NCBI GenBank assembly: GCA_900095095.1
Contig: FMBT01000324.1
Location: forward strand, 248,001-312,000
Direction: 5' to 3'
Length of the DNA stretch: 64,000 nt
From: Fragilariopsis cylindrus CCMP1102
Taxonomy: Eukaryota > Bacillariophyta > Bacillariophyceae > Bacillariales > Bacillariaceae
The translations under genes and the position numbers were made by a program. The stretch's first letter is position 1. Every line of letters begins with the position of its first letter. The notes under the pieces were generated by a model. That model did not search any database. It was not told where the DNA came from and saw nothing but the letters and a program-made list of their open reading frames with translations. Below are positions 3,315 through 35,358 of the stretch, one piece after another.

Positions 3315-4949
3315 ATGTTTAGCCTCCCTCCAGTTGCAACGGTTGTGATCGATGATGCACTTGAGTTTATCTATTCGTTTGGACCATTGGCCGAAAAAAC
3401 TTTGGTTTTGGGTAAGTAATAATAGTATAGTATTGGATTATTCGTGACGAGATTGATTCAAAAACAAACTTAATCAATGCATCTCAACGATTTTATGTTA
3501 TGTTATATTACGTGTTAATTTATCTTTTTTACTACAGTTCCAGATGCTTTGAGAGATCAAGTAGCTGTCGTCGCCGATATGGCGGGTATGGATACAGAAA
3601 CTATATCATACGTTCTTGGGTTATTTGTTTGCTACCCACTTGGTATGATCATGGCTCAAATTCCGTACGGAATGCCAAGACACATCTTTTCATTTATTCT
3701 TGGTGCCTTCCTTCTCCAGTTTACATTAGGCGTCCAATGGATCCATCAGCTTATTAGTTCCTTGATTGCATACGGTATGATTTTAGTTCTACCACGCAAG
3801 ACGCTTAAGATGGCATTACCTATTTTTGCTATGCTTTATATGACCCTAGGTCATCTCCATAGACAATATATTAATTATCTTGGTTGGGATTTAGACTTTA
3901 CAGGAACCCAAATGGTTTTGACCATGAAACTCTATATGATCGGATATAATTTGTATGATGGTGAACTTTTGGCTAAGGGTACCGACAATCGAGCTGCGAA
4001 GAAGTGTGCACCGTTCGCATTGGAAAAAGCACCGGGGTTACTAGAATTTCTTGGTTATACCTTTTGCTTCTCAAACATACTTGCCGGTCCTGCTGCAGAA
4101 TACTCAACATATTTAAAGGCAATTGATGGAAGTATTTTCAAGAGAGCCGATGGAACATCGAAGATACCAAGTTGTATTTGGAAGACTCTCGAACCACTTC
4201 TTACCAGTCTATTAAATTTAGCTATTTTCATGACACTTAGCGCTAAGTTCCCTCTACTTAATGAAACCGATCCGCAACATGCCACCCCATTCATCCTTGG
4301 GTCCGAATTTATGGCAAGACCTATCTATCTTCGTTTTTTACACGCATGGTTAGGATTATTTGCCCTTCGTGAGAAGTACTACTTTGGATGGAAGAACGCC
4401 GAGGGTGCACAAAATATTTGGTATGCAGGATTTGATGGATGGGATAAGGATGGAAATGAAAAGGGTTGGGAAACTTCGAATAATATTGACATTATCGCCT
4501 TTGAAACAGCCCCGGATGTTTCTAGATTGTCAAGAAGCTGGAACAAAAAGACATCCAATTGGTTGTCTCGTTATGTGTACATGCGTCACGGTGGTAACTT
4601 AATGGCTGTATATTCCATGAGTGCATTCTGGCACGGATTCTACCCAGGATATTATATCTTCTTCATGTCTGTTCCTTTGCCTACATTCTGTGATCGAATG
4701 GCCAAGAAGAAACTCTCACCGTACTTTTCAACATCGGATTATTCTTTGTACGGTATCATTGGTACACTGGCTACAACGATTACAATTAACTATATGATTT
4801 TACCATTTAATATGCTTGATCGAACATGGTCATTTGAAGCATACAAGAGCTTCTACTTCTTTGGTCACATCGGTTGCATTGTTTATTACGTCGCTCTATC
4901 TATGCTTCCGAATGCTGCGAAGAAGGACGACAAGAAAAAAATTGCATAG
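3315..4949 (+). CDS. MBOAT-family lysophospholipid acyltransferase (LPCAT/ALE1-like)
   Basis: Exons 3315-3411 and 3538-4949, joined across a 126-bp GTAAGT..CTACAG intron, give about 502 residues. The protein is polytopic and should acylate lysophospholipids with acyl-CoA in the ER (Lands cycle). Diagnostic motifs: SNILAGPAAEYSTYL near residue 210, comparable to the GPxxEY motif of MBOAT1/2/5; NWLSRYVYMRHGG near residue 372; and SAFWHGFYPGYY near 395, with His398 as the expected catalytic histidine. The C-terminus ends KKKIA, a canonical KKXX ER-retrieval signal. Length matches the family (450-520). ATG at 3315 is chosen because exon 1 supplies the usual N-terminal segment and splices in phase. 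Lipid specificity cannot be told from sequence. Frame is intact. Confidence 0.93.
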
Positions 4950-5908: not shown

Positions 5909-5983
5909 TTAGAGCAAAGTTATGCTATCAAACTCAACGGGGATTACTCTCACCACAAAATAATAGAGGAACTATCCAATTTT

Positions 5984-6070
5984 GTGCGCATGATCCAATT
6001 TGGTAATTGGTACAGGCTTCAAACCTGTAGACGGCTAACGCCGTAGTTGTTCGATTCAACCTTGCGCACG
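5984..6070 (+). tRNA. trnU: tRNA-Sec (TCA), copy 1
   Basis: The 87-nt sequence folds as a eukaryotic selenocysteine tRNA. Acceptor arm: 9 positions (5984-5992 with 6061-6069), including the U-U mismatch at pair 8 also present in the human gene. D-stem: 6 bp (CCAATT/AATTGG) with a 4-base loop TGGT. Anticodon stem: 6 bp (TACAGG/CCTGTA) with loop CTTCAAA, anticodon TCA, which reads UGA. Variable arm: ACGGC-TAAC-GCCGT. T-arm: GTTG-TTCGATT-CAAC. Discriminator: G6070. No CCA is encoded. The 9/4 acceptor/T architecture separates it from suppressor tRNAs. The stretch CAGGCTTCAAACCTGTAG is identical to the human gene as I remember it. Copy 1 has C at position 4, giving a Watson-Crick pair. Confidence 0.97.
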
Positions 6071-6146
6071 TACGTACATTGGAAATGCTATCAAACTCAA
6101 CGGGGATTACTCTCACCACAAAATAATAGAGGAACTATCTAACTTT

Positions 6147-6233
6147 GTGTGCATGATCCAATTTGGTAATTGGTACAGGCTTCAAACCTGTAGACGGCTA
6201 ACGCCGTAGTTGTTCGATTCAACCTTGCGCACG
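6147..6233 (+). tRNA. trnU: tRNA-Sec (TCA), copy 2
   Basis: Same fold and anticodon as copy 1, exactly 163 bp downstream. It differs inside the tRNA only at position 4 (T instead of C), which turns the fourth acceptor pair into a G-U wobble and should leave the structure functional. No run of four or more T follows before copy 3. Confidence 0.96.
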
Positions 6234-6309
6234 TACGTACATTGGAAATGCTATCAAACTCAACGGGGATTACTCTCACCACAAAATGATAGAGGAACTA
6301 TCTAACTTT

Positions 6310-6396
6310 GTGTGCATGATCCAATTTGGTAATTGGTACAGGCTTCAAACCTGTAGACGGCTAACGCCGTAGTTGTTCGATTCAACCTTGCGCACG
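6310..6396 (+). tRNA. trnU: tRNA-Sec (TCA), copy 3
   Basis: Identical to copy 2 across the 87 nt as far as I can compare by eye. The downstream flank leaves the repeat at about 6411. On the plus strand the first TTTT after it is near 6633, inside the convergent methyltransferase gene, so a conventional Pol III terminator is not evident. Confidence 0.96.
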
Positions 6397-6549
6397 TACG
6401 TACATTGGAAATTTGACTTTAGTCTTGATAATAACAATCTTTAATATAAAATAATTAGTATTATACGTAGCTATTTCTATATAAATGTTTCGATACTGTG
6501 CAACACGTCATAACAAATTACACTATTATTTGAAATGGTCTTTAACTAT

Positions 6550-9302
6550 CTAATTTACTCTCCACACCAAATTCTTGACAGGTTGTGACCCGATCGAAGG
6601 AAAATCTACTGACATTGGCTGTATCCGTTCAAGTTTTGATTGCACCCCTGCTCTTTCCAGGCCTGTTTGACATGAAGTTGTAAACTTAAGTGAAGATAGA
6701 CTGGCATTGTTGGTGCTTGTAATCATAATTCCTCCCTTTTTCACTAATGGAGCAGCCATCTGAACGAGTTCAGCCATATCACGCCCTACACTCCAACGCT
6801 TCTTCTTCTTTCCAACACTCGAGCTGGGGGGATCTAAAATCACAACATCGTATTTTTCACCTCTCTTGGATAATTTTTCTAACCATTCAAAACAATCACC
6901 ATAGATGCAATCGTGGCGCTCGTCAAAGTCGATTCCATTCGCCTCAAGTTGGGGCTCAATTCGGTCCAACCATTTCTTATTCAGATCAAGACTTACTGTT
7001 GATGCTCCCGCTTTGGCGGCGGCAATTGTAAAAGCACCACAATGTGCGAAACAGTTCAAAACGTGAGTATCTTCATTACAATACCGAGAGAGCCAAGCCC
7101 GATGCGGTCGCTGATCCAAAAATATTCCAGTAGACAAATCTCGATCTAATGATACGTGGTAGGTGATCCCGTTCTCAAGAATTGGGACAATCTCAGGAGC
7201 TTCTCGACCTTCAATCAATAGGGGTCGAATTTTGTCCTTAGAGCCCATGGCCGCACGATCTTGATTCGATGGTAGGAGGTAAACTCCGGCAGTATACCCA
7301 TCGTGTATCGATGGTAGAGGACCTCGAGGCTCCTTTTCATCGTGTTGCACAAAAAGCCAGTCACTATATCGATCAACGGTCCAGCCAGGAAAACCATCGG
7401 CAGCTCCATTCACCTCTCGGTATGAATTCGTTAGAGGGTTATCGCGAAGAGACTGACGACCTAGAAACGACCCTTCCTGAAATTTGTGATTATTAAGGCG
7501 GTCGGAGAGAATTGCAATGTCGTCCGGGATTTCAGCAGTCTCGGCCTCTGCAGTTTCATCAAACAATAAGCTCGACACTGACATCGAATTACAATGAATA
7601 AGTCGTCGAGGAGCTCTACGATCGAAAGGATTGGCTGCAGGATCTCCACGAATACCATCTTCAAATTGAGCCTGTGCATGGTTGATAACATTTGAGCAGG
7701 TAGAAAGATGTTCCGAAATTACAAATCGTACTGTCTGGGATACATCACCTTCTCTGCCTTTTCTGACTCTAGATATCATATCCACCTGAAAGGCATCATT
7801 TGGTAAGGGCTTTGCATCCTTCTTCGATTTAAAAGCAAGGAAATTGCCGTTCCCGACGACAGCTACATACTCGGCGTAGTCAATGAAGAGATTCGCGACG
7901 TTTTTCTTTGGGCAAATCAGTACCAGTCCAGAATCATCAACATCAGTTGCACCAGCTAAAGCAGTCCAAAATTTTCCACCCCGTATTGGATTCCCTTCAT
8001 CCTCTCTTTTCTTTTTAGCCACGAAACAATTGAAGGTCTCTGATAGGACGAGAAAGAAGCAGCATCGTCTTTATTTTTCACTAATCTTGCTTTTATTCTT
8101 TTAAGATTTTCAACCGTACTTTGATCAATACCTTCTTCATCCATTGACTCGTACCTTTGTTGGATACTATCATTGCTTTTATCGTTGTTCGGTTCTTCTT
8201 TATTCGCGTCGTATTCCTGACGTTCTTCGGGAGACAATAACGCAAGTATATCCGCCTCATCAAAATTTTCTGGTACATCGTTTGGATCGTAATCTTCATC
8301 CTCAATGCCAGCCTCCTCACGCTCTTTAGCTGTCATGCTTTTAACATCGGACCATCCAGGAATATCGATCTTGTTAGCTGTACCTGCTGATGAATCAAAC
8401 AAGGAATCAGAATCAGCCTGCTCTTCGAGCATAGCCTCCCTCTCTTCTGGCGACAACAAGGCCAGGACATCAGACTCATCAAATTCAATAAATTCATCCT
8501 TTCCATTTTCATTTTTGATTCTTATCGTTTTGATTGTGTTTTTTGGTTTGTTAGATGGACCCTTAGTATTTGGAACCTTTTTGGGTGCGGGCGACGATTG
8601 TGGCTGCTTGGGGGTCGTCTTTTGCTTTTTGGAGATACTGCCACCCAAGATGGACCAACCTGCAGGTTTATTGATCAAATAGGCATAGGAACCACTAGCA
8701 CCATTTCCAGTGTCATCATCTTCCACACGAATTTGACCTACAATTTCTGGTTCCACTGTGTCTACCAATGGATCACAATGTTGATTGGCAGGATTTGATA
8801 GTCCCGTCTTTTTCGCCTCAAGTATATGGATACTATCTTTATTTGTGCTCATATTCGTATTTGGACTCTTTCTTTCAACGTCGTCGCCGTTATCATTTTC
8901 TTGTGATCTGTCATCATTTTTGGACTCGCCACCACGTTGGGAAGCGTACACATATCTCTGTTTAGGATTATCGGTTCGCTGTCGTGTACGCTTATTTCTT
9001 CGACCATTCTTTTTTTGTTTCTCCATAGTTGATCCAGCATATTTTTCTTGATTCCTGAGTAGTTCCTTTTTTAAAGCACCAATTGTCGTCTGCTTCTTCT
9101 TGAAATTATTACTGTTTTCTGTATTATCGTACCGTTTCTCTTTTTCCACCGCATTTAAGCTAGTCGCTCTAGGCATTACTGAGGTCGTCGTAGGAAGAAT
9201 GAACGCAGTGACATAGTAAAATTGAAATATAGCACCTAGTAAAAGTAATGTCCTGCAACTAGTAGATATGTGCGCGCCCGTCGTGGCATGTCTTTTCGGC
9301 AT
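6550..9302 (-). CDS. Plastid-targeted RlmI-like SAM methyltransferase with acidic N-terminal extension
   Basis: Start ATG at 9302. Two overlapping frames (9302 to about 8010, then to 6550) join if one A is added to an A5 run at 8012-8016, giving about 917 aa with RPSIVSWLK reading straight into KKREDEGNPIRGGKFWTALAG. The N-terminus has a hydrophobic signal peptide ending VTAF-ILP, a diatom plastid-import signature. A lysine- and acid-rich region follows, with YLINKPAGWSILGG (reminiscent of RluA-type NKPxG, weak) and a repeated motif LALLSPEER (twice, near residues 285 and 370). The C-terminal 450 residues match the RlmI/RlmKL methyltransferase fold: STGIFLDQR, SAM loop VLNCFAHCGAFTIAAAKAG, LDLNKKWL, and DPPSSS motif IV. 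RlmI makes m5C in 23S rRNA, so a plastid rRNA substrate is inferred. The cysteine expected after the last strand (SCSG in RlmI) is replaced by STNN. Confidence 0.82.
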
Positions 9303-21734: not shown

Positions 21735-24700
21735 ATGGCGCCAGTCTTTGCGGCGATTGGAATTACGCCACAGATTATCGACGATGAAAGACTCAAAACA
21801 ATAAGAAGCTCTCTGGAGGCAATATTTCTGAAAGGACCATTGGATTATGCGAATTGTGCTTCAATAGAGGAAATTACCATGCCGCTCGATATCGAACGCA
21901 TTGTGACGCTGTTAGAACCCTGCCAATCGTGGACGTTTGAGGAACAGGTAATTATTATTCTATTGTTTTCCCTTTTATATATATATTGAATACTTCAGAC
22001 AATCTAATCTAACCTTGTCAACACCATCTTCTTCTTTTCGCAGGTCGATCTTCAAGAATGGGTTGAGGTTTTGAACAGAATTGACGCTTCTTTGTCGTAT
22101 TACATTCAGAAATATCCTTCTCTATTACTGATTGGTCCCGTTGAACGGAGAAAGTCAAAGGATGCATCAAAGGCTCTGGAACAACCTGTATCCAAACCAG
22201 CAAGATCACTCGAGGACGTCAACAGTGTACCTGATACTGTTCGAAAGAATATTGTTATTATATTGAAATTCTTGTCGGGTTTACTTGCAAACTCATCCAA
22301 TAAAACAATCTTTAATTCTGTTGAAGAGCTGGTCGATCTTTTAGCGGCTGCAGATGACAATATTTCATCCGCATCTTTAGAAACATTATGTGCTTTAGCT
22401 ACTCCTCCATCTTTGCACAAACAACAGGTTCCGGAGATTCAGCAGCATTGTTCTGCCTTGCACCAATCAAAATCTGCCTCACATAAACGACTTACAGCGC
22501 TGGCTAGGGGATGGGGTACTCGTGGATCGGGTTTAGGGTTATATACGTGTGCCGTGGCCGACGACTCTTCATTCGGCCAAGGTACACTTCCACAGCAGGC
22601 AGGAGAACTAAATTTTAACTTTTTCAAAACTCAAACAACATCCGAAGAAAATAAGACCGGGGACGACGAGGAAATGGAAATTGACGATTCTTCTTTATTG
22701 GTTCGTATAAACCTATCAGCTAACAATTTTGTAGAAGATTCCTCCGAGGTGGCGGTCGACGCGATGACGGCAATGAAGACCAGTGACGAAAGTGATGATT
22801 CTACAGGGAGTAAACAGAAACGGAGAAAAGTTGCTTTGACTGGAAAAGGGGAGAAAAGAGTTCGATCTACTGCTGACCTATTCTTCGATTGTCTTCAACA
22901 GGTTGGTGGATCGGAAAAATCCCTGCAGATCGACTATTTCCATTGCTAGCGGATATTCGTCTCACAAGATCATTCTACTGTCAGGCAACAAGAGTTGGTG
23001 CAATTGAACGAAGACTTCAAGCTCTCATTACTATTCTTCACGCACATCCGTCTCAAGAGATTATGGCTGGATACTTTCAAGCACAACCAGAACTTTGTGT
23101 CGAGTTGGTAGATCTACTTCGTCCAACTGTTTCATCTGGAGCGGTATCAGCAGCTTCGTCATCACCGACATCTGTTAACCACCCTGCACTCAATCAAGAT
23201 AGTATTGCAGCTCTTGCAAATTCTCCGATTGTTCCGTACCAAGTTCGGGAATTAGCTCTTCAATCATTGACAGCATTGGCTGCTCGTCGAGATGGTAGTA
23301 ACGGGGCCCTAGCAGGATTCGCACGACATTCAAATATTCTATCAGAACTCGGAGTCGGTAAGGGACAGTATCTAGGTCTTCTTCCAACTTTAATTAGGTA
23401 CTCGCTTGCTTCTTTAGGATCTCTGGTTTCCACCTCTCCTAGCCCTGATGAAAATAAATCAAACGAGATCTTTGGTGGTTCCATACCATCAGACAAAGGA
23501 ACAGTAGAAGATGATATATGTACCGATATCGGTTTGGCATTCATAGAGGCAACTTCAGCCCCAGCTCTGCCAAGGTTTCAACAACTGGAAAAGGCACTTC
23601 TTTTTATTGACTCTGTACTTACACTAACATCAGCGATTGTGTCAACGCCTTCGGGGACATCATCTCTCACTGAATGTGGCTTAGTACCTGCATTGTTGAA
23701 TACTGTATCCATTCACTCCGATGAATCTATGGGGAATATCATGCCAGAGTCGTCTTCTACATTTGAAGTCTTGCGAATACAATCGCTTCTTAGATTTATA
23801 ATAGCTCAGGCGGTACAAATACTAGAGGGCGCCATTGTCACTCACAACAATGCATTATCTGCATTTCACAATCTGCAGGGAGTGGAGGTTCTTACCACTC
23901 GTCTCTCGAAGGAGATATTGAGTGTACGTGACAAGAGAATTAACGCTGAATCAAATCACGAGTGTTCACCTATGGATATAGACAATACAGATACAAATAG
24001 AATGGAGTTGGATTCTTCTTCGTCTATTTCTTCTGATGTTGGACCACGGGCATCGCAAAGAGTGCTGCTGTTTGGTATTGTGACATGTTTGACAGTGGTT
24101 TTCCATCAAGAATCCACATCTTCGTCTGTCTCAGTACCATCTGGTACGGCAGAAATACAGAAACCCGAGTTAACGGAGGCATTGATTGAGATCCTAGATA
24201 ATGTCGACTTGTATGGTGGGCACCTCGCCTCACTCATTTCGACACTTTTGTCAGATGTAATGAATAGCGACCCTCATGTGGTACGTTACGTCCACGAGAG
24301 TGGCCTAGCGCGTTCGTTCTTGAAGATGCTCGATTTTGGACCTTCAGTTGAACCCATTCCTCCACCAGTACCCGAATTGATTATGTCCATTCCTACCGTC
24401 CTGGCTGCACTAGCTTTGACGGAAGATGGCGCAAAGAAAATTAAAGGAAACAATCCCTTCCCTGGACTGCTCAAAATCTTTTATCATCCGAAATATGCTA
24501 TGCCTAGGAGTCGGTGCTTACTGAATGAAATGACCTCAATAGTTGGAACTGGTCTTGATGAAATTATGCGTCATGTTCCAGCTTTGAGTAAACTTATCTG
24601 TAAGGCAATTTCGGAGGCTATGATGGAAGTTGTGTCTTTTGGAGAAGTAGTATCAAAAAAGGAATTAGACCTCCCACCTGCAGTCGAAGGTGCTACACCA

Positions 24701-27700
24701 TTGGATGTAGACAATGATCGATCGTGTCTCATACAGTACACCCTCAACTTTGGACAAATTCTTGAGCAGATTCTTCATAATGAAGAACATTGTGAACCTT
24801 TCGTCGAATCTGGAGGTCTAGATGCAATACTGAAGATGTATCCCCATCTGATGCCAACAGGTGATAGGTTCCTCGCGCATGTCAGTTGTCTTAGCTGTCC
24901 ATCTTTGAGTACAATCAGCCATTCTACAACAGAAGAAGCTTTGACTTTGGCGTTCAAATGCATCTCTCTGAGATACGATCCATTGAAACTCATTCGGAAA
25001 ACAGTTGATGCAATGAAGCAAAACATCGATCTTCTCAAAGTAGCGCAGCTTGAAATGAGATCGGCTTTTCCATCGGATGATTATAACACCGAAGACGATT
25101 TCGACGCCATTTACGTCCTCGATGGTTTACCTCGTCTATCTATATGTGACATTAAAGATCCCTCATTTATTTCGAATAAAGTTGTACTGGCGAAGTATCT
25201 TAGAGCAACTGTTACTATCCAATGGCTAGCTGGGCTTCTTTCGGCGGTGATTCAGGCATCTTGTCAACGTAGCTCAGAGAGCGGTGCTGCCTGGAGTCGA
25301 ACAGAACGCGAATGGAAGAAAGAACTATCTTCTCCCGAATTTCAAGATGTATTCGCTTGCTTGTCGAGTTTTTTTCAGTCTGCCACATTTGAGGCATGTC
25401 GCATTCGTACCGAGGAAGGGTTTGAGGAAAGAGAGATGAAGAGACAACGAGGGAATGATTTAGATCATGTGCGATATAAACTGCGAATCGTTTGTCCAGA
25501 AGGTGCAGTTGTACGTGATGGGATCGAAATTGATAGTTGCGAGAGTGTCGGAAGCATGGAGATGGGTGAGATTGTTGAATCGTTTGATCGTTGTGTAAAT
25601 TCTTCAGGTGTTTTACGGTATCGGACGCAGAGAGGCTGGCTCTCAGAGCAAACTCGGGGTCATGGGAGAGAACCAATTGCTGAAGTTTTGGCTGTTTGGA
25701 AGTCTAAGACCAATGATAAAAGTGAGCAATCAGAGCGGGACACCAAGGGACGCATTGAAGATGGTATACCTGATCTTCGTAGTTCTAGTGCCAATGTCCT
25801 AGCCAGGATGCAAACAATCTATGTTGAATTATATTCATCTTTAATTCGATTAGCGCTTCAGAGCTTGCCTTCTCTGTCCGTCCGTCATATCTCGTTCCAG
25901 CCAGGGGCTGTCGGTTGGCATATATCTACTCTAATGAGAATGTTGAGCTCAGGAATTACCAAAGGCTTTGCAAGACCAGAAATTTTCAATACAATTCGAA
26001 CAACATCGGAATGTAAAATCAATAAATTGGGTGTTTCTCTCTATCTAGGATCTTTGCTCAGCCATCTCCAAGCATGCCTCTTCGAAGATAAAAGAGATAA
26101 ACAGACTGTACATTTGCCTTTGCTTATTTCCCTTGCAAGTACGCATATTGACATGGTCGACGAAGTTTCTGACAATGCAGAGACAACTAAGATAAGTTTT
26201 TTCGATGGAATTCAATTTATTTTTGAGCTATGTCTCGCCGATTTTGAATCGAGAGCTGCAAAATTGATTATTCAAGATACCGACAAAAATATCCCTAGAC
26301 AGAGGTTGAACAGAACAACAGCATCTTGTCTGCCTCCCGCAACTACTTTACTTCGTCGTCTGTTATCAGTTCCTTCAATTGTATCCTCTCAAACGGTCGC
26401 GCTTCTTGGAAAGATGAAAGAACAGGACATCTCTCTTCTTTTTGGCATGACGACGCAAGCTGAACAATCTACTCCGAACGGCGACGATGAACCGAAAAAC
26501 TTTGTAATTGAACAATTTTCGCGAAAGTTGTTATGCAAAGTGTCCGATATTATAATAAAACCTTGGACTGACCCTAGAATAGTTAATGCACCACCGCATG
26601 TCATACATCCACTATCGACTCTGGTATCGGAAACAATGATCGCTCTCGAAGACTCAAAAAAATCTTCATTGCCATCAGCAGCCCCTACACCACCAAGTAC
26701 TAATAGTGCAAGGGAGAATCCTGCTTCCAATATTCCATTTCGTAGTATGTTGGAAGGATTTAGAGCAGCAACAAATGGTGTAAATCCAAGTGATGACTTT
26801 GAGCCATCAGAAGAAGCAATATCGCGTTTAATGGAAATGGGCTTCAGTCGAGATCATTCTTGGGATGCTATAGACAGAACAAGATCCAATACACTAGAAA
26901 TTGCAATGGAATATGCATTATCCAATGCACCTTCGAGTACTGAAAGCATAGGAGAAAGAAGAAGTCTACGACAAATGAATCGACTTCAACGTCTACGTCG
27001 AGAACAAGTAATGTTAGAAGAAACGGCTGCTAATGCTGTAACAGGAGAAAGGAGTCAACCTGATTCTGGATCCAATGCCAATCCGTCTGATGCGAATGCG
27101 AGCGCTGGAGCCATGGATGTAGATCAAGCCACTTCGAATGAAGTTGCAGTTACAAAAACTGAAGCAGACCGTTCACGTGATGCGTTGATTGAAATGGTCT
27201 CATCACGTATCACTTCTTGGAAGCTGGAAAGCTCCAGAGTTGCTTGTACCATCTTATCATATGAAAAAAAGACTGGTCCCGTTGAAACTGCTAACTACGA
27301 GAGCAAGGGTGGTGGTGAAAGCGAAGCTCTGACAACTGTCATATCATCTTTTCTACTCAACCTATGTCAACGGCATCCTGACGACAGAGATGTAATTGCC
27401 GGGGATATTTTTAATCGTCTCAAGGATCAGATGTTAGAAAAGAAAGACGGCGAGACCAAATTCTGGAGTGTAATCCCTGGCAACGAATCAAGCTTTGCTT
27501 CACTTTGTCACTGTGCAGTGCTCTTTATCCGTGCGATACCAAAGATGCGGACGTTATTGCTAAAGGAAGGGCTTGTGGGCTCCATTATTTCTATTATTAC
27601 TAATTACTTGAAAGATTCAAACTTTAATAATGCCTCAAACCCGAAAGGAAAGAGATGGCCTATATGGTTTCCCTCTACTCTTCTGTTGCTGGATATTATG

Positions 27701-30700
27701 GCTCAACCTATTGTTGCTTTCTCAGCCAAAGATAACATAGACGATTCCGATAAGATCGACGGTAAAAATTCTTATCAAGAGTTCTACCAGGTAAAAGAAG
27801 AACATAAAAAACAGACATTGGAACTTTCTGCTTTGGCACATAAGCTATTCTCTGCGTTGAATAAAGTGGATAATAAAACTATCTCGAAATCCAAGAAAAG
27901 TGTTGAAGGGGACGATTTGCCGTCGAGTACAAGTACAGATAGCAAGAACGAAGAATCCGAGTCAAGTTCGACGAAGATCGAAATGATATTCCAGTCTGTC
28001 CCTGCCTACTTCCCGCTGATTCCTTCTCAGACTGTTGAGACCTGTGCAGATATTTGTCTCGCGATCCTTGGAGACGAATCACCCTCAACTCAACCGGGAG
28101 TTACCCATGGAGCACTCCTATTGCTAATGAGACTATTGCGAAATCCGAAGATGTCTACATACTGTATGAAAGCGTGTGCAGGGCAAAAAATCTTGAGTCT
28201 TCAGCGATCATGTCGTTTCAACGGACACTCGGGTTTAGTTGCACTTATCTTCCGACGTCTATTAGAAGATGAAACCACGCTTCAATCTTCTATGGAAACT
28301 GAAATTAGAAATGCCATCGTTAAGTTAGACGGAAAAAAAGTGAGCGCTGTCCCAGGTGAGAAAGAAACAATCAGTGTTCCTCGTAAATCCTTTCTGAAGG
28401 CAATCACACCCATTCTATGTCGTGATCCAGCTTGTTTCTTGAAGGCATTGGCGGGGACAACAGTTTTTGAAAAATCTAGTTCCGATTCTGATGGGCGTGT
28501 AACTCTTCTTACAACTGCTCAGCGGTCAAAACAAATGGAAATCATTTCAGAAACACTGAATCTAAAACAAGCACATTCGCAAACCGGAAAGGTATCAACC
28601 GACCGTAGGCGATCAAGTGCAAGTAAACAAAAGAGACTTTCAAATGGGGGTAGAGGAAGAAGTAAGACTCCCACTCGTTCAAACAAGCGGCGATCGATTA
28701 GTAAAAAAGATAAGGGAGAAACAAAAGAAAATAACGAGGAAGATCATTCCAAACATCATGGTCATCACACACCTTCAATATCACAACAAATCACTTGGCT
28801 TTTATTGAATCAAATTATCCAAACAGGTGTGCCGAAAGCACGTGGTGATAATACTGAATCATCCAAAGATGACTTTGATTTGTTTGGATACGAAACGTCA
28901 TTTCTCTGGACGGCTAATATGTTGGAGATTCTTGCCGACTTGGTTCTATCAATACCTGCGTGTGCCACTGCCATCCACAAGTTCAAACCTCGGAAGAATC
29001 GAGAATCATCTTTTTCTACTATTAATAATGCTCTTCAGGACAGTCCAAGCCCCCCTCGAACATTTGTTAGTTTTTTGCTTCATGTACTTCTTTCACAGGA
29101 TCGCTGGAATGTAAAAGCGAACAAGAGAGTTGATAATGAATCAAATTCTGATGGCAATGATTTATCAGCATCGGAAAAAAGAACGAAAAAGTATGCATCT
29201 CTTCGAACGAAAGTTGTTCGGTCAACAGCGCGACTTCTTGTGGCGTTAGTAGCACGACCTGGGGAGGGGAGACGAAGAGTAATTGTCGAGCTAATATTTG
29301 CTCTAAGTGGAGGTCAAGTGCAGAAACAATCTGCTTCATCAATTCTTCCAACTAAGACACCACTCCATCCACGTTCAAGTGAGCTTCATGCCCTTCAAAG
29401 TTGGGGTGAGCTTTGCATCGGGTTTGCTGCTCCGAAAAGCAACGGGAGTAATTACGATTCAAATAGTTCATTGAGTTTTGAGGTCATCAAGATTATGCTT
29501 GAAAACGGTATGGCTCATGCTCTCTTGGTAGCCATGCATCGGGTTCCATTGTATCATCCTATGGCGTCAGGTACGGTAGGTGCTTTGATCCTGCCATTTG
29601 AAATAATAACTCGATCGAGTGTAGCTGACTCTGTTAAGACGATTGTCGAAAAAGAGGCCAGGGCGCGGGAGGGTAAAGAAGGAAAAGCAACGAAGTCGGC
29701 CAGGCTAAGTATTTCAAAAGAGAAGAATTCAGATGTTGCCCAACGTCTTGACTCTTTTGTGGCCGATGATCATATGCTGGAGGATGCCTTCGCGGAAGAG
29801 ATTTCACCACGTGGACGAAGGTCTGAGGATGATGATGATGATGATGATGACATAATAATTGATGATGATGAGCACGATTTGGTTGACGTGGAGGATGCTA
29901 CCGGTATGGATATTGAAGATGACATCGACGGGGAAGCAAGTGATGATGACGACGATGATGATGAAATGTCCAGCGAAAGCGATTCGTCAAATAGTGATGA
30001 CGATGATTCCGACATCGATGATGACGATGATGGAGATGATGATGACGAAGATAGCGAAGATAGCGACGACGATGATGACGACGACGACGATGATGGTGGA
30101 GACGACGAGTCCATGCTGGACGATGGTGAAGAATCAGATGGTGTTCATAGTATGGCAGAATTTGAGGAAGACGCCTTCAACCTCGACTCACGATCAAATG
30201 GACTAGTTGCTGAAAATAATAGAAATGAATTCGAAGAAGCCCTCGAAAGAGAGCGTGCAGAAAATCACATTGAAGAAGGGTGGACTCGCGTCGAGCAAGG
30301 TGGTGGTCTTGGTGGAATGGTTCTTGGACGAAGGGGGGTCGGTCAACACTTGGCTGGTTTAGCTGGACCATCCGCGGGTAGATCTCCAAATAGAAATTTT
30401 CTTGATGCAGCAGAAGCTATGATTGGTACGCTCCTTCGGACCGGAGAAATTCGAAGTGATGCTCTTTCAGAGATTGAAAATACTCTTGGTATCCGGATTG
30501 TTGGTGGAAGGAATACCGGTGCTCCAGGAGGGGGAAACCCTCCGAACAATAGTGGTACTTTTGGAAGTTTGTTCTCGAGACAACAGGGTAGGACGGGAAG
30601 CAACACTAGATCGTCAAGAGGAATAGTTGGGGCACTTCCACAAATTATCCAAATGAGTCAACCTGATCTAGGATATTCAACAATGGGAGGAAGGGGAAAT

Positions 30701-33700
30701 CGATGGAATGAAACAAATCCGGCGGAGTACTTGTTTGGTGGACCGTGTATCACGGCTGGAAGCAGGCATTATGATTTGATCTCTCCCGTTGTTGAATCAG
30801 AGGATGATGATGAAAATAACACATCGTTACCAACTGGGTCAGGACCAGGTGATAGTACACAACTTTTCCCCGGAGGTGTAGCTGCTGCAACTCACGCACG
30901 AACGCAACATTCTGCGCATCCTCTTCTTGGCGATATCAATCTACCACCAATCAATGCTCTTGTTTCAGATATACAGCCACATGGTATCAGAGCGAGTAGA
31001 AGTAGACAGTCTAATGCCCGGAGATTTGGTGAATGGACGAGCCCTCACGGGGGATTTTTCGTTTCAAATTCAAATGGGACTGTTGTTCGATCGAATCGGA
31101 TGATGAACAATACCTCTCAAGGTGGATCAGCACCTGGTAGTTCTGGTCCGTTTGGATGGACCGATCATGATGGTCCTCCTTTTGACGCTGAGCAGTTCAG
31201 CTCAGCCTTTGAAAATGCACTTGGAGAGACTGAGACTCTGCTTGCTACTTCTTCAACGAACCAAGGAGAATTAGAACCGACTATTCCCGAAAACCCTGGG
31301 CTTAACGACGTCGATAGAAACGAAGAGCAACCATCAGCACTCACACAAATTACTCTAACTCAAGAAGAAGAAGTTGTTGACCCGAATAATGAAACATCGA
31401 ACGACAATGAAAATCTGGATAGTAATGGGGAAGAACAAGATGGGGATGGTGTGGCCTCTTCGCTGGCTGTTGGATTACGCCTTTCACCACCAGCAAATGA
31501 ACCGAATGGAAACAACGATCAAAATCCAGGTTCCAATGACGATCTAATAGCAAGTAATGATTTTGTTGCCAATCCACATCCAGGAGTTCAAGAGGATGCG
31601 AACACTACATCTCCTACCGAAACAGAGGGCCAGCAAGTGGAACCCGATGCACAAGATACGACAATGGACATTGGAGCTGATGCTGGTTCTGGTGCTGGTG
31701 GTGGAGTGCCAAATGGGAACGGACTTGTTTGTCCTTCAGGAATGGATCCTGAAGTATTCAACGTCCTTCCGCTTGAAATGCAGGAGGAAGTAGTTAGCCA
31801 AGCGAGAGAAGCATCAGAGTTGGCGGAACAACTTGATGCTACTTCGTCCCTAGACCCCGAAGCTCTTGCAGCTTTACCAGAGGATATGAGGCGTGAAGTT
31901 ATCCTACAGGAACAGCAAGAACGTCGTAATAGAGAACAAGCACCCGCAGATCCATCAAATGCTGAAGAGATGGACAATGTACGTACACATTACACATTAT
32001 ATATTAGTATTTACTGCTTTTGTTCCTTTTCTCGTGATCGATCGATTCTCTCTATCTTGACAGCACAATTAAACCCCACTCACGGCAATATTATTCTCTC
32101 TCTTTTTCTTATACACTTTCCATACTACTATTGAAACAACTACAGGCATCCTTCGTCGCTTCTTTAGCTCCCGATCTCCGAAATGAAATCCTCCTGACGG
32201 CGGATGATGCGTTTATTCAAAGTCTTCCTCCAAATATTGTTGCCGAAGCTCAGATTCTTAGGGAAAGAGCAAGAACTCGAATTACTCAACGTATGTATGC
32301 AGAGCAAGCTGCTACCGAAAATAGCCAACGTGAAGCAGCAGGTACGAATAGAAATGCAGCAGGAGCAGGAGTGGCAAGGGTTCGTCAACCACCCCAAGGT
32401 GGGAGTGGGCGAGAGCATGCTTCTTCTTCGCGACGAAAACAACGCAATGGTAAACTCCGTGTTGAGTTGGACAGGAAGGAAATTGCTTTTATACCTAGTA
32501 AAGGACCGTTGTCTTTGACAACTCCCATCTCCAAGTCTGATTTGAAATCCTTGATTCGCTTCATGTATCTACTTTACCCAGTTCGACCTCATCGAATTCT
32601 GCAGAAGGTATTCCAAAATATTTCAATGAACGGCTCTCTACGACTGATCTTATCATCAACTTTTTTGAATCTACTTAACGACGAAAAAGATGGAGCTTTA
32701 TATGCGTTAGATACAACTGATAATCTTTACAGCGGTCCTGACGACTGGAGGAAAAAAATTGATGTACTTTTCGAAGGTTCTCTCCAGGATTTTCCTCCCA
32801 ATTTATTGATTGGAGCCGCACCAGACGTTCTAGAAACTGATGGGTTGAATCCAAATATCCTAATGATTCGTCGAAGACAAACCTCGGACATGGCTGCATC
32901 AACTGCAGCAAATTTACCTATCACCTCTCGAGGCTCACAACATGAACAGTTCCTATCACCTGTCGTATCTACACGTATGATAGAAAATCTTTTACAGATG
33001 TGCAAGAACTCCCAGCGTTTTTGTCTTGATATGCTTGTGAAAAATCTTATCACCAATTCTAACTTAAGGGCTCCTACGGGATTTGAGAGTTTGCTCGATC
33101 TCCTAAAAAATTCGAGGTATTCGAAAAGTTCTGCGAATCTTGAGCAACTTTTGAACCTCCTGGAAGTTGTCGTATCTCCTTTATCTCATATTCCAAAGCT
33201 TGGAGAAGACAACGTTATTCTTTCTCAGAATGAAATTGACGAAGCTGCTTCTCAACGAAAAGAATGGGTAGATGTTCCTCGTGTAACAGTTTCACAAGAA
33301 AGACTTCAACTTCTTTGCTCTATTCTTCGAATGGAAACATGCAAGGATACCGCTTTTGCTAAGGTCAACACTATTGCACGTAGATTATGTCGTGTCGACG
33401 CAAATCGTGGGTATGTGCTGGCTGAACTTGCTTCGGTTGCTAGATCATTAGGCGTTGATGCAACCCGTGACCTCACAGCCCTTAATATACGGATTAGCGC
33501 TACTATTGATAAGAATCAAGATCAGAAGGTAAAAAGTGGTCCAGGTGACTTATCGAAAAATGACGGAAATTCAGTAGTGGTCGTTGATGGTAAAAGGAGT
33601 ACCTCAACCTCTGTTGCTGTGTCGACAAGCACAAGTGAATTGAAGCTACTTAGGGTCCTTCAAACTCTCCAGTCATTATGTGCAGAAACGCCTGAAGATG

Positions 33701-35358
33701 GATCGTCAAAAAGAAATGAAGGGCTTGTTTTTGTAACGGGCGAATTTGTGTCATTGTTGGATGCAATGAATTTCGATAATTTGTGGACCGAATTGACGTC
33801 ATGTTTGAAAGTGGTTCAAGTTCTAGAAGGTGTTAGCATTGAAAAAGATGCAGACAAGGACTCTGATGACAACAATACGGACGACGGTGCGGACGAGACT
33901 GAAACTGGTGAAAAGAAGAAGCTAGAGAATAGTATTGCAGGACTATTGACTCGGTTTTTGCCTTCAATCGAGTCTTTCTTCGTAGCTAATGGGAGCTTGA
34001 CTAGGAGCTTGAAAAATATCGATCAAAAAGAAAGTGATGAAGCTGAAGTTCAAGAGGACTCATTGGTCGGTGGAAAGAAACTGATTGATTTTGTTGACGC
34101 AAATAAGATACTGCTCAATGCACTTGTTAGGAATAATTCGGGTCTACTTGAGAAGGGCTTGAGGGCTCTGATTCAGCTTCCTCGTTGTCGGATGCTACTT
34201 GATTTTGACGTAAAAAGACACTGGTTCAAGGTCCAAGTTAGACGACTTCGTCAACACGCAAATCGTCGGTACGGTAGCATTCGTCTGCATATTCGACGCG
34301 ATCAGGTCTTTTTCGATGCTTATCATCAACTTTCTCTTAGAAGTGCAGAAGAAATGCGAGGAAGACTTCACATAACGTTTCGGAACGAGCAAGGTGTGGA
34401 TGCTGGTGGACTTTCACGTGAATTTTTTGGTATTTTGGCAAAAGAGATTTTCAATCCGAACTATGCTCTTTTCACAAGCACAGAAGATGGGTGTACCTTC
34501 CAACCAAATCCTAGCAGCAGCGTCAACCCTGATCATTTGAGTTACTTTCGATTTGTTGGACGCATTGTTGGGAAAGCTGTCGCCGATGGTTATTTACTTG
34601 ATTCACACTTTACAAGGAGCCTGTACAAACACATGCTCGGAATAGAGCCGACACATCACGATATGGAGGCGATCGATCCAGATTATTACAAGAATCTGAA
34701 AAGTATTTTAGAGTACGATGTTGCTGATCTTGGTTTAGACTTGACCTTCTCAATTGAAGACCACTCCTTCGGAAGGTGTCAAGTTGTTGATCTAATTCCT
34801 AATGGTCGGAATATTCCCGTTACAGAAGAGAATAAATCCAAATATGTCAGCCTTGTTTGTCAGAATCGAATGACCACAGCTATCTCATCTCAGATTAAAG
34901 CCTACTTGGATGGATTCTACGAACTTGTGAGCAAAGATCTCATTCAAATATTCACTCCAAGAGAACTTGAATTGCTGATATCGGGTCTTCCTGATATAGA
35001 TGTGACGGATTTGAAGAAAAACACCGACTACAACGGTTGGAAATCAACGGATAAGCAGATCGAATGGTTCTGGAATATTCTCTTCTCATTGACCAGGAAT
35101 GAAAAAGCCGCATTTATGCAGTTTGTTACCGGTAGCTCAAAGGTCCCACTAGCTGGATTTTCCTCTCTACCCGGTATGCGCGGTGTCCAAAAGTTTTCAA
35201 TTCATAAGACAGGAGGGGGAGTGGGAGGTAAGGCCCTTCCATCGGCTCACACCTGCTTCAATTCCCTTGATCTACCTCCATACGCCTCAGAAACTGAATT
35301 GAAAGAGAAGCTCATGTATGCTATCAACGAGGGCGCTGTTGGTTTCCTCATGGCATAA
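21735..35358 (+). CDS. HUWE1: Giant HECT E3 ubiquitin ligase (HUWE1/TOM1/UPL1 type)
   Basis: Exons 21735-21947, 22044-31978 and 32146-35358 encode about 4,453 aa. The middle exon needs one extra A in GGAAAAATC near 22916 to join LQQVGGSEK to IPADRLFPLLADIRL. Layout: armadillo-like N-terminal half (DUF908/DUF913 type); a UBA domain, AISRLMEMGFSRDHSWDAID, near residue 1660; a very acidic Asp tract near 2665-2770 (29827-30130); two or three ubiquitin-binding motifs near 3300-3365 and after intron 2 (MDPEVFNVLPLEMQEEVV, LDPEALAALPEDMRREVI, LAPDLRNEILLTADDAF); and a C-terminal HECT domain from about 4080, with GVDAGGLSREFFGILAKEIF and catalytic Cys4420 in HTCFNSLDLPPY. Family members extend or build ubiquitin chains on nuclear and cytosolic clients (histones, ribosomal proteins). 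The final residues EGAVGFLMA match the usual HECT end. Confidence 0.95.

What the first reader, a model, noticed from the sequence alone, without database searches (positions are those of the whole stretch)
5922..6411. Three tandem selenocysteine tRNA genes in an exact 163-bp repeat
Selenocysteine tRNA is, to my knowledge, usually single-copy or nearly so. Here three complete copies with a eukaryotic 9/4 fold and TCA anticodon sit head to tail, each with its own 62-bp upstream flank. Near identity of the spacers implies recent amplification, possibly raising Sec decoding capacity in a selenoprotein-rich alga.
Basis: partly seen in the sequence, partly recalled or inferred. Interest (0 to 1): 0.85.

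Follow-up and report, generated by a model that had tools for sequence, protein, structure and literature searches.

The report
Terminator-less tandem selenocysteine tRNA gene array
A polar diatom carries an unusually large family of genes for the tRNA that inserts selenocysteine; three sit head to tail here without the stop signals seen after its ordinary tRNA genes, so they may be copied as one RNA and cut up.

Summary
Three complete tRNA-Sec genes (5984-6070, 6147-6233, 6310-6396, +) lie in a 163-bp repeat, near-exact: units differ at 1 to 4 of 163 positions. The genome is almost certainly Fragilariopsis cylindrus: it encodes PDB chain 6a8k at 234/234 residues. It holds at least 13 tRNA-Sec genes in five places; two pairs of places look allelic, so I infer about 7 per haploid set. 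Two separate contigs carry the same array, 491/491 bases. High copy number in this species is in print: 11 predictions (PMC5330540). Tandem tRNA-Sec genes are in print for Trypanosoma cruzi (PMC12421993).

What I did not find described is the 3' side. All 57 ordinary nuclear tRNA genes sampled have TTTT within 40 nt downstream; only 2 of 13 tRNA-Sec genes do. After copies 1 and 2 there is none before the next gene; after copy 3, none until 6634. Most likely the array is read through as one multi-tRNA precursor and cut; the polymerase is undetermined. Raised Sec-decoding capacity is untested, and earlier authors saw no unusual selenoprotein number.

The parts
5922..6084 (+). repeat unit 1 (163 bp): 62-bp 5' flank, tRNA-Sec gene, 14-bp 3' flank
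6085..6247 (+). repeat unit 2
   Evidence: 3 of 163 differences from unit 1
6248..6410 (+). repeat unit 3
   Evidence: 1 of 163 differences from unit 2
5984..6070 (+). tRNA-Sec(TCA) copy 1, with discriminator G73
   Evidence: RF01852 80.2 bits
6147..6233 (+). tRNA-Sec(TCA) copy 2
   Evidence: RF01852 78.0 bits
6310..6396 (+). tRNA-Sec(TCA) copy 3
   Evidence: RF01852 78.0 bits
6071..6146 (+). 76-nt spacer between tRNAs 1 and 2, no TTTT; contains the GGAA/ATGC unit junction
6234..6309 (+). 76-nt spacer between tRNAs 2 and 3, no TTTT
6397..6637 (+). 3' flank of copy 3; first TTTT on + starts at 6634, 238 nt after the gene
5980..5983 (+). only TTTT inside the array, directly before tRNA 1; CTTT at the same place in units 2 and 3
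3519..4949 (+). upstream neighbour: MBOAT-family open frame, ends about 970 bp before the array
   Evidence: PF03062, E 2.8e-27
6550..8070 (-). downstream neighbour: SAM-dependent methyltransferase-like open frame, convergent with the array
   Evidence: PF10672, E 1.3e-19

Best explanation
This is a head-to-tail array of three probably functional tRNA-Sec genes, part of a family of about seven per haploid set in the polar diatom Fragilariopsis cylindrus. A single gene with its flanks was duplicated in tandem as a 163-bp unit, probably before the two assembled haplotypes split, and a piece of the array was later copied into one allele of a second tRNA-Sec cluster. Because the units lack the T-run terminators that every ordinary nuclear tRNA gene sampled here has, the array is most likely transcribed through all three genes (and past the third) as one precursor, from which RNase P and RNase Z cut the mature tRNAs. 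SHOWN by sequence: genes, fold, G73, number of places, identity of the two arrays, the shared spacer in the second cluster, absence of TTTT. INFERRED: allelism, haploid number, direction of exchange, transcription as one precursor, processing, and function of each copy. I put about 0.9 on the gene-family part and about 0.45 on the read-through precursor; the number below is for the whole statement.
For: Genes and fold: (13 of 13 have G73; among 7 distinct tRNA sequences, 5 of 6 D-stem pairs and 1 of 6 anticodon-stem pairs show changes on both sides; covariation score reached by 0 of 500 shuffles, number of pairs with double changes by 5 of 500). Family size: 13 of 15 listed RF01852 matches over the cut-off, 53 of 3172 candidates scored, so a lower bound; the other two are tRNA-Ser(TGA); the 163-bp unit as query finds the same 13. 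Presumed alleles: C69 and C547 arrays identical at 491 of 491, flanks 98.2% and 99.9%. Exchange: C138 carries the array-type spacer with its GGAA/ATGC junction where its presumed sister allele C56 has a different spacer and a different copy 3. Terminators: TTTT within 40 nt in 57 of 57 ordinary nuclear tRNA genes (54 of 57 within 20) and in 2 of 13 tRNA-Sec genes; by distinct flank 48 of 48 against 1 of 6, Fisher p 1.9e-6 (the 6 were grouped by hand). Random window positions have TTTT within 40 nt in 23%, so tRNA-Sec flanks look like background. U6, taken as a Pol III gene, ends in a T-run. Read-through of terminators, typically 50-200 nt, is described in yeast (PMC5356446, passages).
Against: No RNA data were available, so no transcript is shown. 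Each unit keeps 62 bp of 5' flank and an ordinary B box, so each gene could be transcribed alone. Pol III can also stop at weaker sites (Orioli et al. 2011, seen only as a cited reference in PMC5356446). The single gene at C678 and the last genes of C56 and C138 have a T-run at +44 and +46, and C56 copy 1 and its allele at +12 and +11, so the lack is not total. The independent tRNA-Sec 3' flanks are few (5 or 6). Near-identity of the 3' half of the copies could reflect gene conversion rather than selection. One shuffle measure did not favour covariation: further pair types 11 observed against 12.6 shuffled mean.
Confidence: 0.5

Rival explanations
1. Each array gene is an independent Pol III unit that ends at a non-canonical site other than TTTT. 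The array simply multiplies ordinary single-gene transcription.
For: Every unit keeps its own 62-bp 5' flank, with an AT-rich stretch near -27 seen by eye. Its B box TGTTCGATTCA is shared by 3 of 36 distinct ordinary tRNAs, so it is not degenerate.
Against: 57 of 57 ordinary nuclear tRNA genes sampled have TTTT within 40 nt. After copies 1 and 2 there is not even a TTT until the last bases before the next tRNA (+74).
Confidence: 0.25
2. tRNA-Sec in this diatom is transcribed partly or wholly by RNA polymerase II, as reported for trypanosomatids, so Pol III terminators are not needed.
For: Lack of nearby T-runs at 11 of 13 tRNA-Sec genes. Precedent: PMC6463643 (passages) states that L. [quoted passage not shown] C678 lies about 200 bp after a ribosomal L7Ae-family open frame on the same strand.
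Against: The B box looks ordinary. No shared upstream motif beat shuffles and no U6-like element was found. Neighbouring genes are not consistently on the same strand. In trypanosomatids all 269 tRNA genes keep T-runs (PMC2695483, passages), so Pol II use there did not go with T-run loss.
Confidence: 0.2
3. Adaptive dosage: copies were amplified to raise tRNA-Sec supply for many selenoproteins.
For: About seven genes per haploid set (inferred) is many. Diatoms have 20-44 selenoprotein genes (PMC7539508, passages).
Against: PMC5330540 (passages) reports that the multi-copy genomes do not have particularly many selenoproteins for their taxa. Gene conversion and unequal crossing-over can amplify genes without selection. 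No expression data here. It is compatible with the best explanation.
Confidence: 0.25
4. The array is an assembly artefact or a row of dead copies; only one place (for example C678) works.
For: C56 copy 3 has a broken acceptor pair and a T-loop change, 64.8 bits, so at least one copy looks decayed.
Against: Two separate contigs carry the same three units with the same unit-specific differences. Array copies keep every pair except acceptor pair 8, which is unpaired in all 7 distinct sequences. An earlier study, whose assembly I did not check, found 11 predictions in F. cylindrus.
Confidence: 0.06

Closest known systems
Multi-copy tRNA-Sec of Fragilariopsis cylindrus (Santesmasses et al. 2017, PMC5330540; passages read)
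   Same: Almost certainly the same species. They report 11 non-identical predictions counting 100-nt flanks, 2 with disrupting changes, 3 of the other 9 with compensatory changes, 2 of these alike. Here: 13 genes, 10 distinct with 100-nt flanks; C56 copy 1, C138 copy 1 and C678 differ from the array by compensatory changes, the first two alike.
   Different: The fit is not exact: 10 against 11, and I see one clearly disrupted copy (C56 copy 3), not two. The words 'tandem' and 'terminator' do not occur in their main text; array anatomy, allelic state, exchange between clusters and missing T-runs were not seen there. The supplementary figure was not available.
Tandem tRNA-Sec genes of Trypanosoma cruzi Dm28c (PMC12421993; passages read)
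   Same: Many tRNA-Sec genes (eleven) in tandem on one contig.
   Different: Unrelated lineage. An earlier survey of the three trypanosomatids found T-runs after all 269 tRNA genes, eight T. [quoted passage not shown] passages read)
   Same: A tRNA-Sec gene with transcription unlike ordinary tRNA genes.
   Different: Polymerase use there is experimental; here it is only suggested by missing terminators, and the B box here is ordinary.
Dicistronic Pol III tRNA genes of yeast and plants (recalled)
   Same: Several RNAs cut from one precursor.
   Different: Those, as recalled, have a T-run after the last gene; here the first TTTT lies 238 nt away. Not compared by any search.

Membership tests
Eukaryotic tRNA-Sec | RF01852 score above the gathering cut-off of 47 bits | tested here: met
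   3 of 3 in the window; 13 of 15 listed in the genome, the other 2 are tRNA-Ser
Eukaryotic tRNA-Sec | UCA anticodon | tested here: met
   3 of 3 in the window; ARAGORN of the 13 genome genes and misses C56 copy 3, whose anticodon loop reads the same
Eukaryotic tRNA-Sec | 9-bp acceptor and 4-bp T stem (9/4) | tested here: met
   acceptor pair 8 is non-standard in all 7 distinct sequences (U.U in 6, U.C in C138 copy 2), so 8 standard pairs of 9; C56 copy 3 also has A.C at pair 5
Eukaryotic tRNA-Sec | 6-bp D stem with 4-nt loop and long variable arm | tested here: met
   D stem and variable arm 100% of cells paired in 7 distinct sequences
Eukaryotic tRNA-Sec | discriminator G73 | tested here: met
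   13 of 13
Eukaryotic tRNA-Sec | charged with serine and converted to selenocysteine | not testable with these tools
   only a SepSecS-family match was looked for: found on C651, 220 bits; the same family rings in Bacillus subtilis in the controls, so it is not proof of Sec synthesis
Canonical Pol III tRNA gene | T-run terminator shortly after the gene | tested here: not met
   array copies 1 and 2: no TTTT in 400 nt; copy 3: first at +238; ordinary nuclear tRNA genes 57 of 57 within 40 nt
Canonical Pol III tRNA gene | internal B box | tested here: met
   TGTTCGATTCA, also in 3 of 36 distinct ordinary tRNAs
Canonical Pol III tRNA gene | internal A box | not tested
   D arm is of tRNA-Sec type; no scoring was run
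Animal-type tRNA-Sec promoter (upstream PSE and TATA, shared with U6) | upstream element shared with U6 | tested here: inconclusive
   no motif beat shuffles; only 4 independent flanks and one U6 flank were used, so power is low

The most novel reading that the evidence does not exclude
In this diatom tRNA-Sec has left the ordinary tRNA transcription scheme. Its genes lack nearby Pol III T-run terminators in most copies, and clustered copies are made from multi-tRNA precursors, by Pol III read-through or by Pol II, with processing enzymes setting the tRNA-Sec level.
Probability: 0.4. Interest if true: 0.65.

Novelty: new variant of a known kind. Interest (0 to 1): 0.45.

Why it matters
tRNA-Sec is generally assumed to be a single-copy gene (PMC5330540, passages), with its own promoter rules in vertebrates and altered polymerase use in trypanosomatids; how it is made in diatoms was not found in the papers searched. 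A terminator-poor tRNA-Sec family beside ordinary T-run tRNA genes in the same genome gives a clean, testable case of a tRNA changing its transcription mode, and a natural setting for gene conversion between tRNA clusters.

Tried and rejected
Degenerate B box as support for Pol II: considered because PMC2695483 (passages) reports changes at B-box positions 1 and 11 in trypanosomatid tRNA-Sec. Rejected, since 3 of 36 distinct ordinary tRNAs here have the same B box as tRNA-Sec (one further tRNA-Lys, L096, did not match the B-box pattern used and was not counted).

Upstream promoter motif shared by tRNA-Sec flanks, or with U6: six settings, each matched by 164 to 295 of 300 shuffles; four U6 comparisons matched by 47 to 264 of 300. 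U2 flanks were read by eye only. Negative at low power.

Relatives elsewhere: patterns in viral contigs and genome contigs gave 0 matches. No other diatom genome could be examined.

SECIS (RF00031), U5 (RF00020) and SRP RNA (RF00017) gave no match in the genome. For SECIS and U5 nothing rang in the controls either; SRP rang in 5 of 14 controls, none over the cut-off. I take all three as uninformative.

A Pol II host gene common to all places: rejected. The array follows an MBOAT open frame by about 970 bp, C678 follows an L7Ae-family open frame by about 200 bp on the same strand, and the C56 cluster lies beyond the 5' side of a ClpS-family open frame on the other strand.

Rows dropped or grouped before counting: 7 of 63 RF00005 matches lie on contig C419, a tRNA-dense contig that I take for an organelle (inference), and were left out. 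Of these only L036 was read: its three tRNAs have TTTT at +9, +113 and +39. One extra tRNA-Gly found by ARAGORN in L038 was added, giving 57. The sample is the best-scored RF00005 matches (63 of 2708 candidates scored), not all tRNA genes. For the test by distinct flank, ordinary genes were grouped by identical tRNA type and first 40 nt (48), while the tRNA-Sec flanks were grouped by hand: 7 different 20-mers became 6 by merging C138 copy 1 with C56 copy 1, or 5 by also merging the array's last flank with its inner ones.

Full report
OBSERVATION. The window holds exactly three ARAGORN tRNA genes, all tRNA-Sec(TCA), head to tail on +. RF01852 gives 80.2, 78.0 and 78.0 bits over a cut-off of 47. 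The 163-bp period spans 5922-6412. Units differ at 1, 3 and 4 of 163 positions pairwise. An AT dinucleotide starts each unit and also follows the last one.

ORGANISM. The genome that holds the window (67.9 Mb, 818 contigs; window = C69:248001-312000) has 53 matches to the ice-binding family PF11999. Of 24 ice-binding loci compared (21 different places, three fetched twice), one, L063 on C307, encodes PDB chain 6a8k at 234 of 234 residues; the next best is 86%. That 6a8k is from Fragilariopsis cylindrus is recalled. The review PMC10992025 (passages) shows an F. cylindrus IBP structure and names fcIBP11, but does not print the code. The tRNA-Sec pattern below agrees with this species.

THE FAMILY. 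RF01852 lists 15 places, 13 over the cut-off, with 53 of 3172 candidates scored; the other two are tRNA-Ser(TGA). Searching with the 163-bp unit returns the same 13. They lie in five places: C69 (3, this window), C547 (3), C56 (3), C138 (3) and C678 (1). C69 and C547 look like alleles: flanks 98.2% and 99.9%, array identical at 491 of 491 bases. C56 and C138 look like alleles: flanks 99.3% and 99.9%. Allelism is inferred; a recent duplication of a whole segment would look similar. On that reading there are about 7 genes per haploid set; a second allele of C678 was not seen. The 13 genes give 7 distinct tRNA sequences and 10 distinct stretches when 100-nt flanks are added.

STRUCTURE. On the 7 distinct sequences, 96.2% of cells of the 9/4 cloverleaf form standard pairs; 6 of 30 pairs show changes on both sides, 5 of them in the D stem. 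The covariation score was reached by 0 of 500 shuffles and the number of double-changed pairs by 5 of 500; the count of further pair types was not raised (11 against 12.6); sliding the partners destroys pairing. Relatedness can inflate such counts. Three D-arm types exist: CCAATT/AATTGG (array, C56 copy 2, C138 copies 2 and 3), ATAGCC/GGTTAT (C56 copies 1 and 3, C138 copy 1) and CCTGCC/GGTAGG (C678). G73 is present in 13 of 13. C56 copy 3 has an A.C mismatch in the acceptor and a T-loop change, so it may be decaying.

HISTORY. The array spacer contains a junction (GGAA/ATGC) of the kind made when the unit is duplicated in tandem. The same spacer occurs in C138 between copies 2 and 3, where the presumed sister allele C56 has another spacer and another copy 3. 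The simplest reading is that the array arose first, at C69/C547, and that part of it was then copied into the C138 allele. This is inference from three sequences. The array is on both C69 and C547, so it probably predates their split; copying between haplotypes is not excluded, since the array has no difference while one flank is only 98.2% alike.

TERMINATORS. I compared the distance to the first TTTT downstream. Ordinary nuclear tRNA genes: 57 of 57 within 40 nt, 54 of 57 within 20 (20 type-and-anticodon classes). tRNA-Sec: 2 of 13 within 40 nt (C56 copy 1 and its allele, +12 and +11); C678 +44; C56 copy 3 and C138 copy 3 +46; C56 copy 2 +82; C138 copy 2 +209; array copy 3 +238 on both contigs; array copies 1 and 2 none in 400 nt on both contigs. 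By distinct flank, 48 of 48 against 1 of 6, Fisher p 1.9e-6, or 1 of 5, p 1.7e-5 (tRNA-Sec flanks grouped by hand). Random window positions have TTTT within 40 nt in 23% of cases, so tRNA-Sec flanks are like background. The one TTTT inside the array (5980-5983) lies before the first tRNA; the later units have CTTT there. U6, taken as a Pol III gene, ends in a T-run. The ordinary sample consists of the best-scored Rfam matches, and 7 matches on the presumed organelle contig C419 were left out.

MECHANISM. The missing stops make a precursor that covers all three tRNAs the most likely product, to be cut by RNase P and RNase Z. This step is inferred. Pol III is plausible because the B box is ordinary: 3 of 36 distinct ordinary tRNAs share it, and Pol III read-through is described in yeast and human cells (PMC5356446, passages). 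Pol II is possible: L. major tRNA-Sec uses both polymerases (PMC6463643, passages). However, trypanosomatid tRNA-Sec genes keep T-runs (269 of 269 tRNA genes, PMC2695483, passages), so that precedent is imperfect. No upstream motif was found. A SepSecS-family match exists, but that family also rings in Bacillus subtilis among the controls.

PRIOR WORK. PMC5330540 (passages) reports F. cylindrus with 11 non-identical tRNA-Sec predictions, 2 disrupted, 3 with compensatory changes, 36 selenoproteins, and calls the significance of such copies unclear. PMC12421993 (passages) reports 11 tandem tRNA-Sec genes in T. cruzi. PMC8329260 (passages) only notes tRNA-Sec in Nitzschia inconspicua. Searches of the open library (listings) showed no paper on tRNA-Sec terminators or transcription in diatoms; subscription papers and supplements were not covered.

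VERDICT. Copy number in this species is known, and tandem tRNA-Sec is known elsewhere. The terminator-poor array, its presence on both presumed haplotypes and its exchange with a second cluster are additions that make a clear experiment possible. Interest 0.45.

Noticed in passing
genome G000, 53 places such as C307:329421-330074: Large family of ice-binding proteins (PF11999), 53 matches, several in open frames of 700-1982 aa; a few matched stretches carry in-frame TGA.
   Followed up: partly
L012 (C138) 4257-4506 against L011 (C56) 4543-4830: One presumed allele of a second tRNA-Sec cluster carries the spacer of the window's array: exchange between tRNA clusters, different between the two contigs.
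   Followed up: yes
L013 (C678) 3397-4473: A lone tRNA-Sec gene of a third D-arm type lies about 200 bp after the stop of a ribosomal L7Ae-family open frame on the same strand.
   Followed up: partly
L011 (C56) 4744-4830: tRNA-Sec copy with an A.C acceptor mismatch and a T-loop T-to-C change, missed by ARAGORN but over the RF01852 cut-off (64.8 bits): looks like a decaying copy.
   Followed up: partly
window 22877-35358: Two long open frames (3085 and 1106 aa) on + that look like one giant HECT-type ubiquitin ligase gene split by an intron near 32.1 kb (by eye, no family search run).
   Followed up: no
L052 and L053 (U6 on C384 and C499): Two U6 genes share an upstream block (AATTTCGCAAGACTCGAGTGAATCGTG) and a TATA stretch at about -28, while the sequence between and around them differs in part. 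A candidate diatom U6 promoter element; the two may be alleles.
   Followed up: partly
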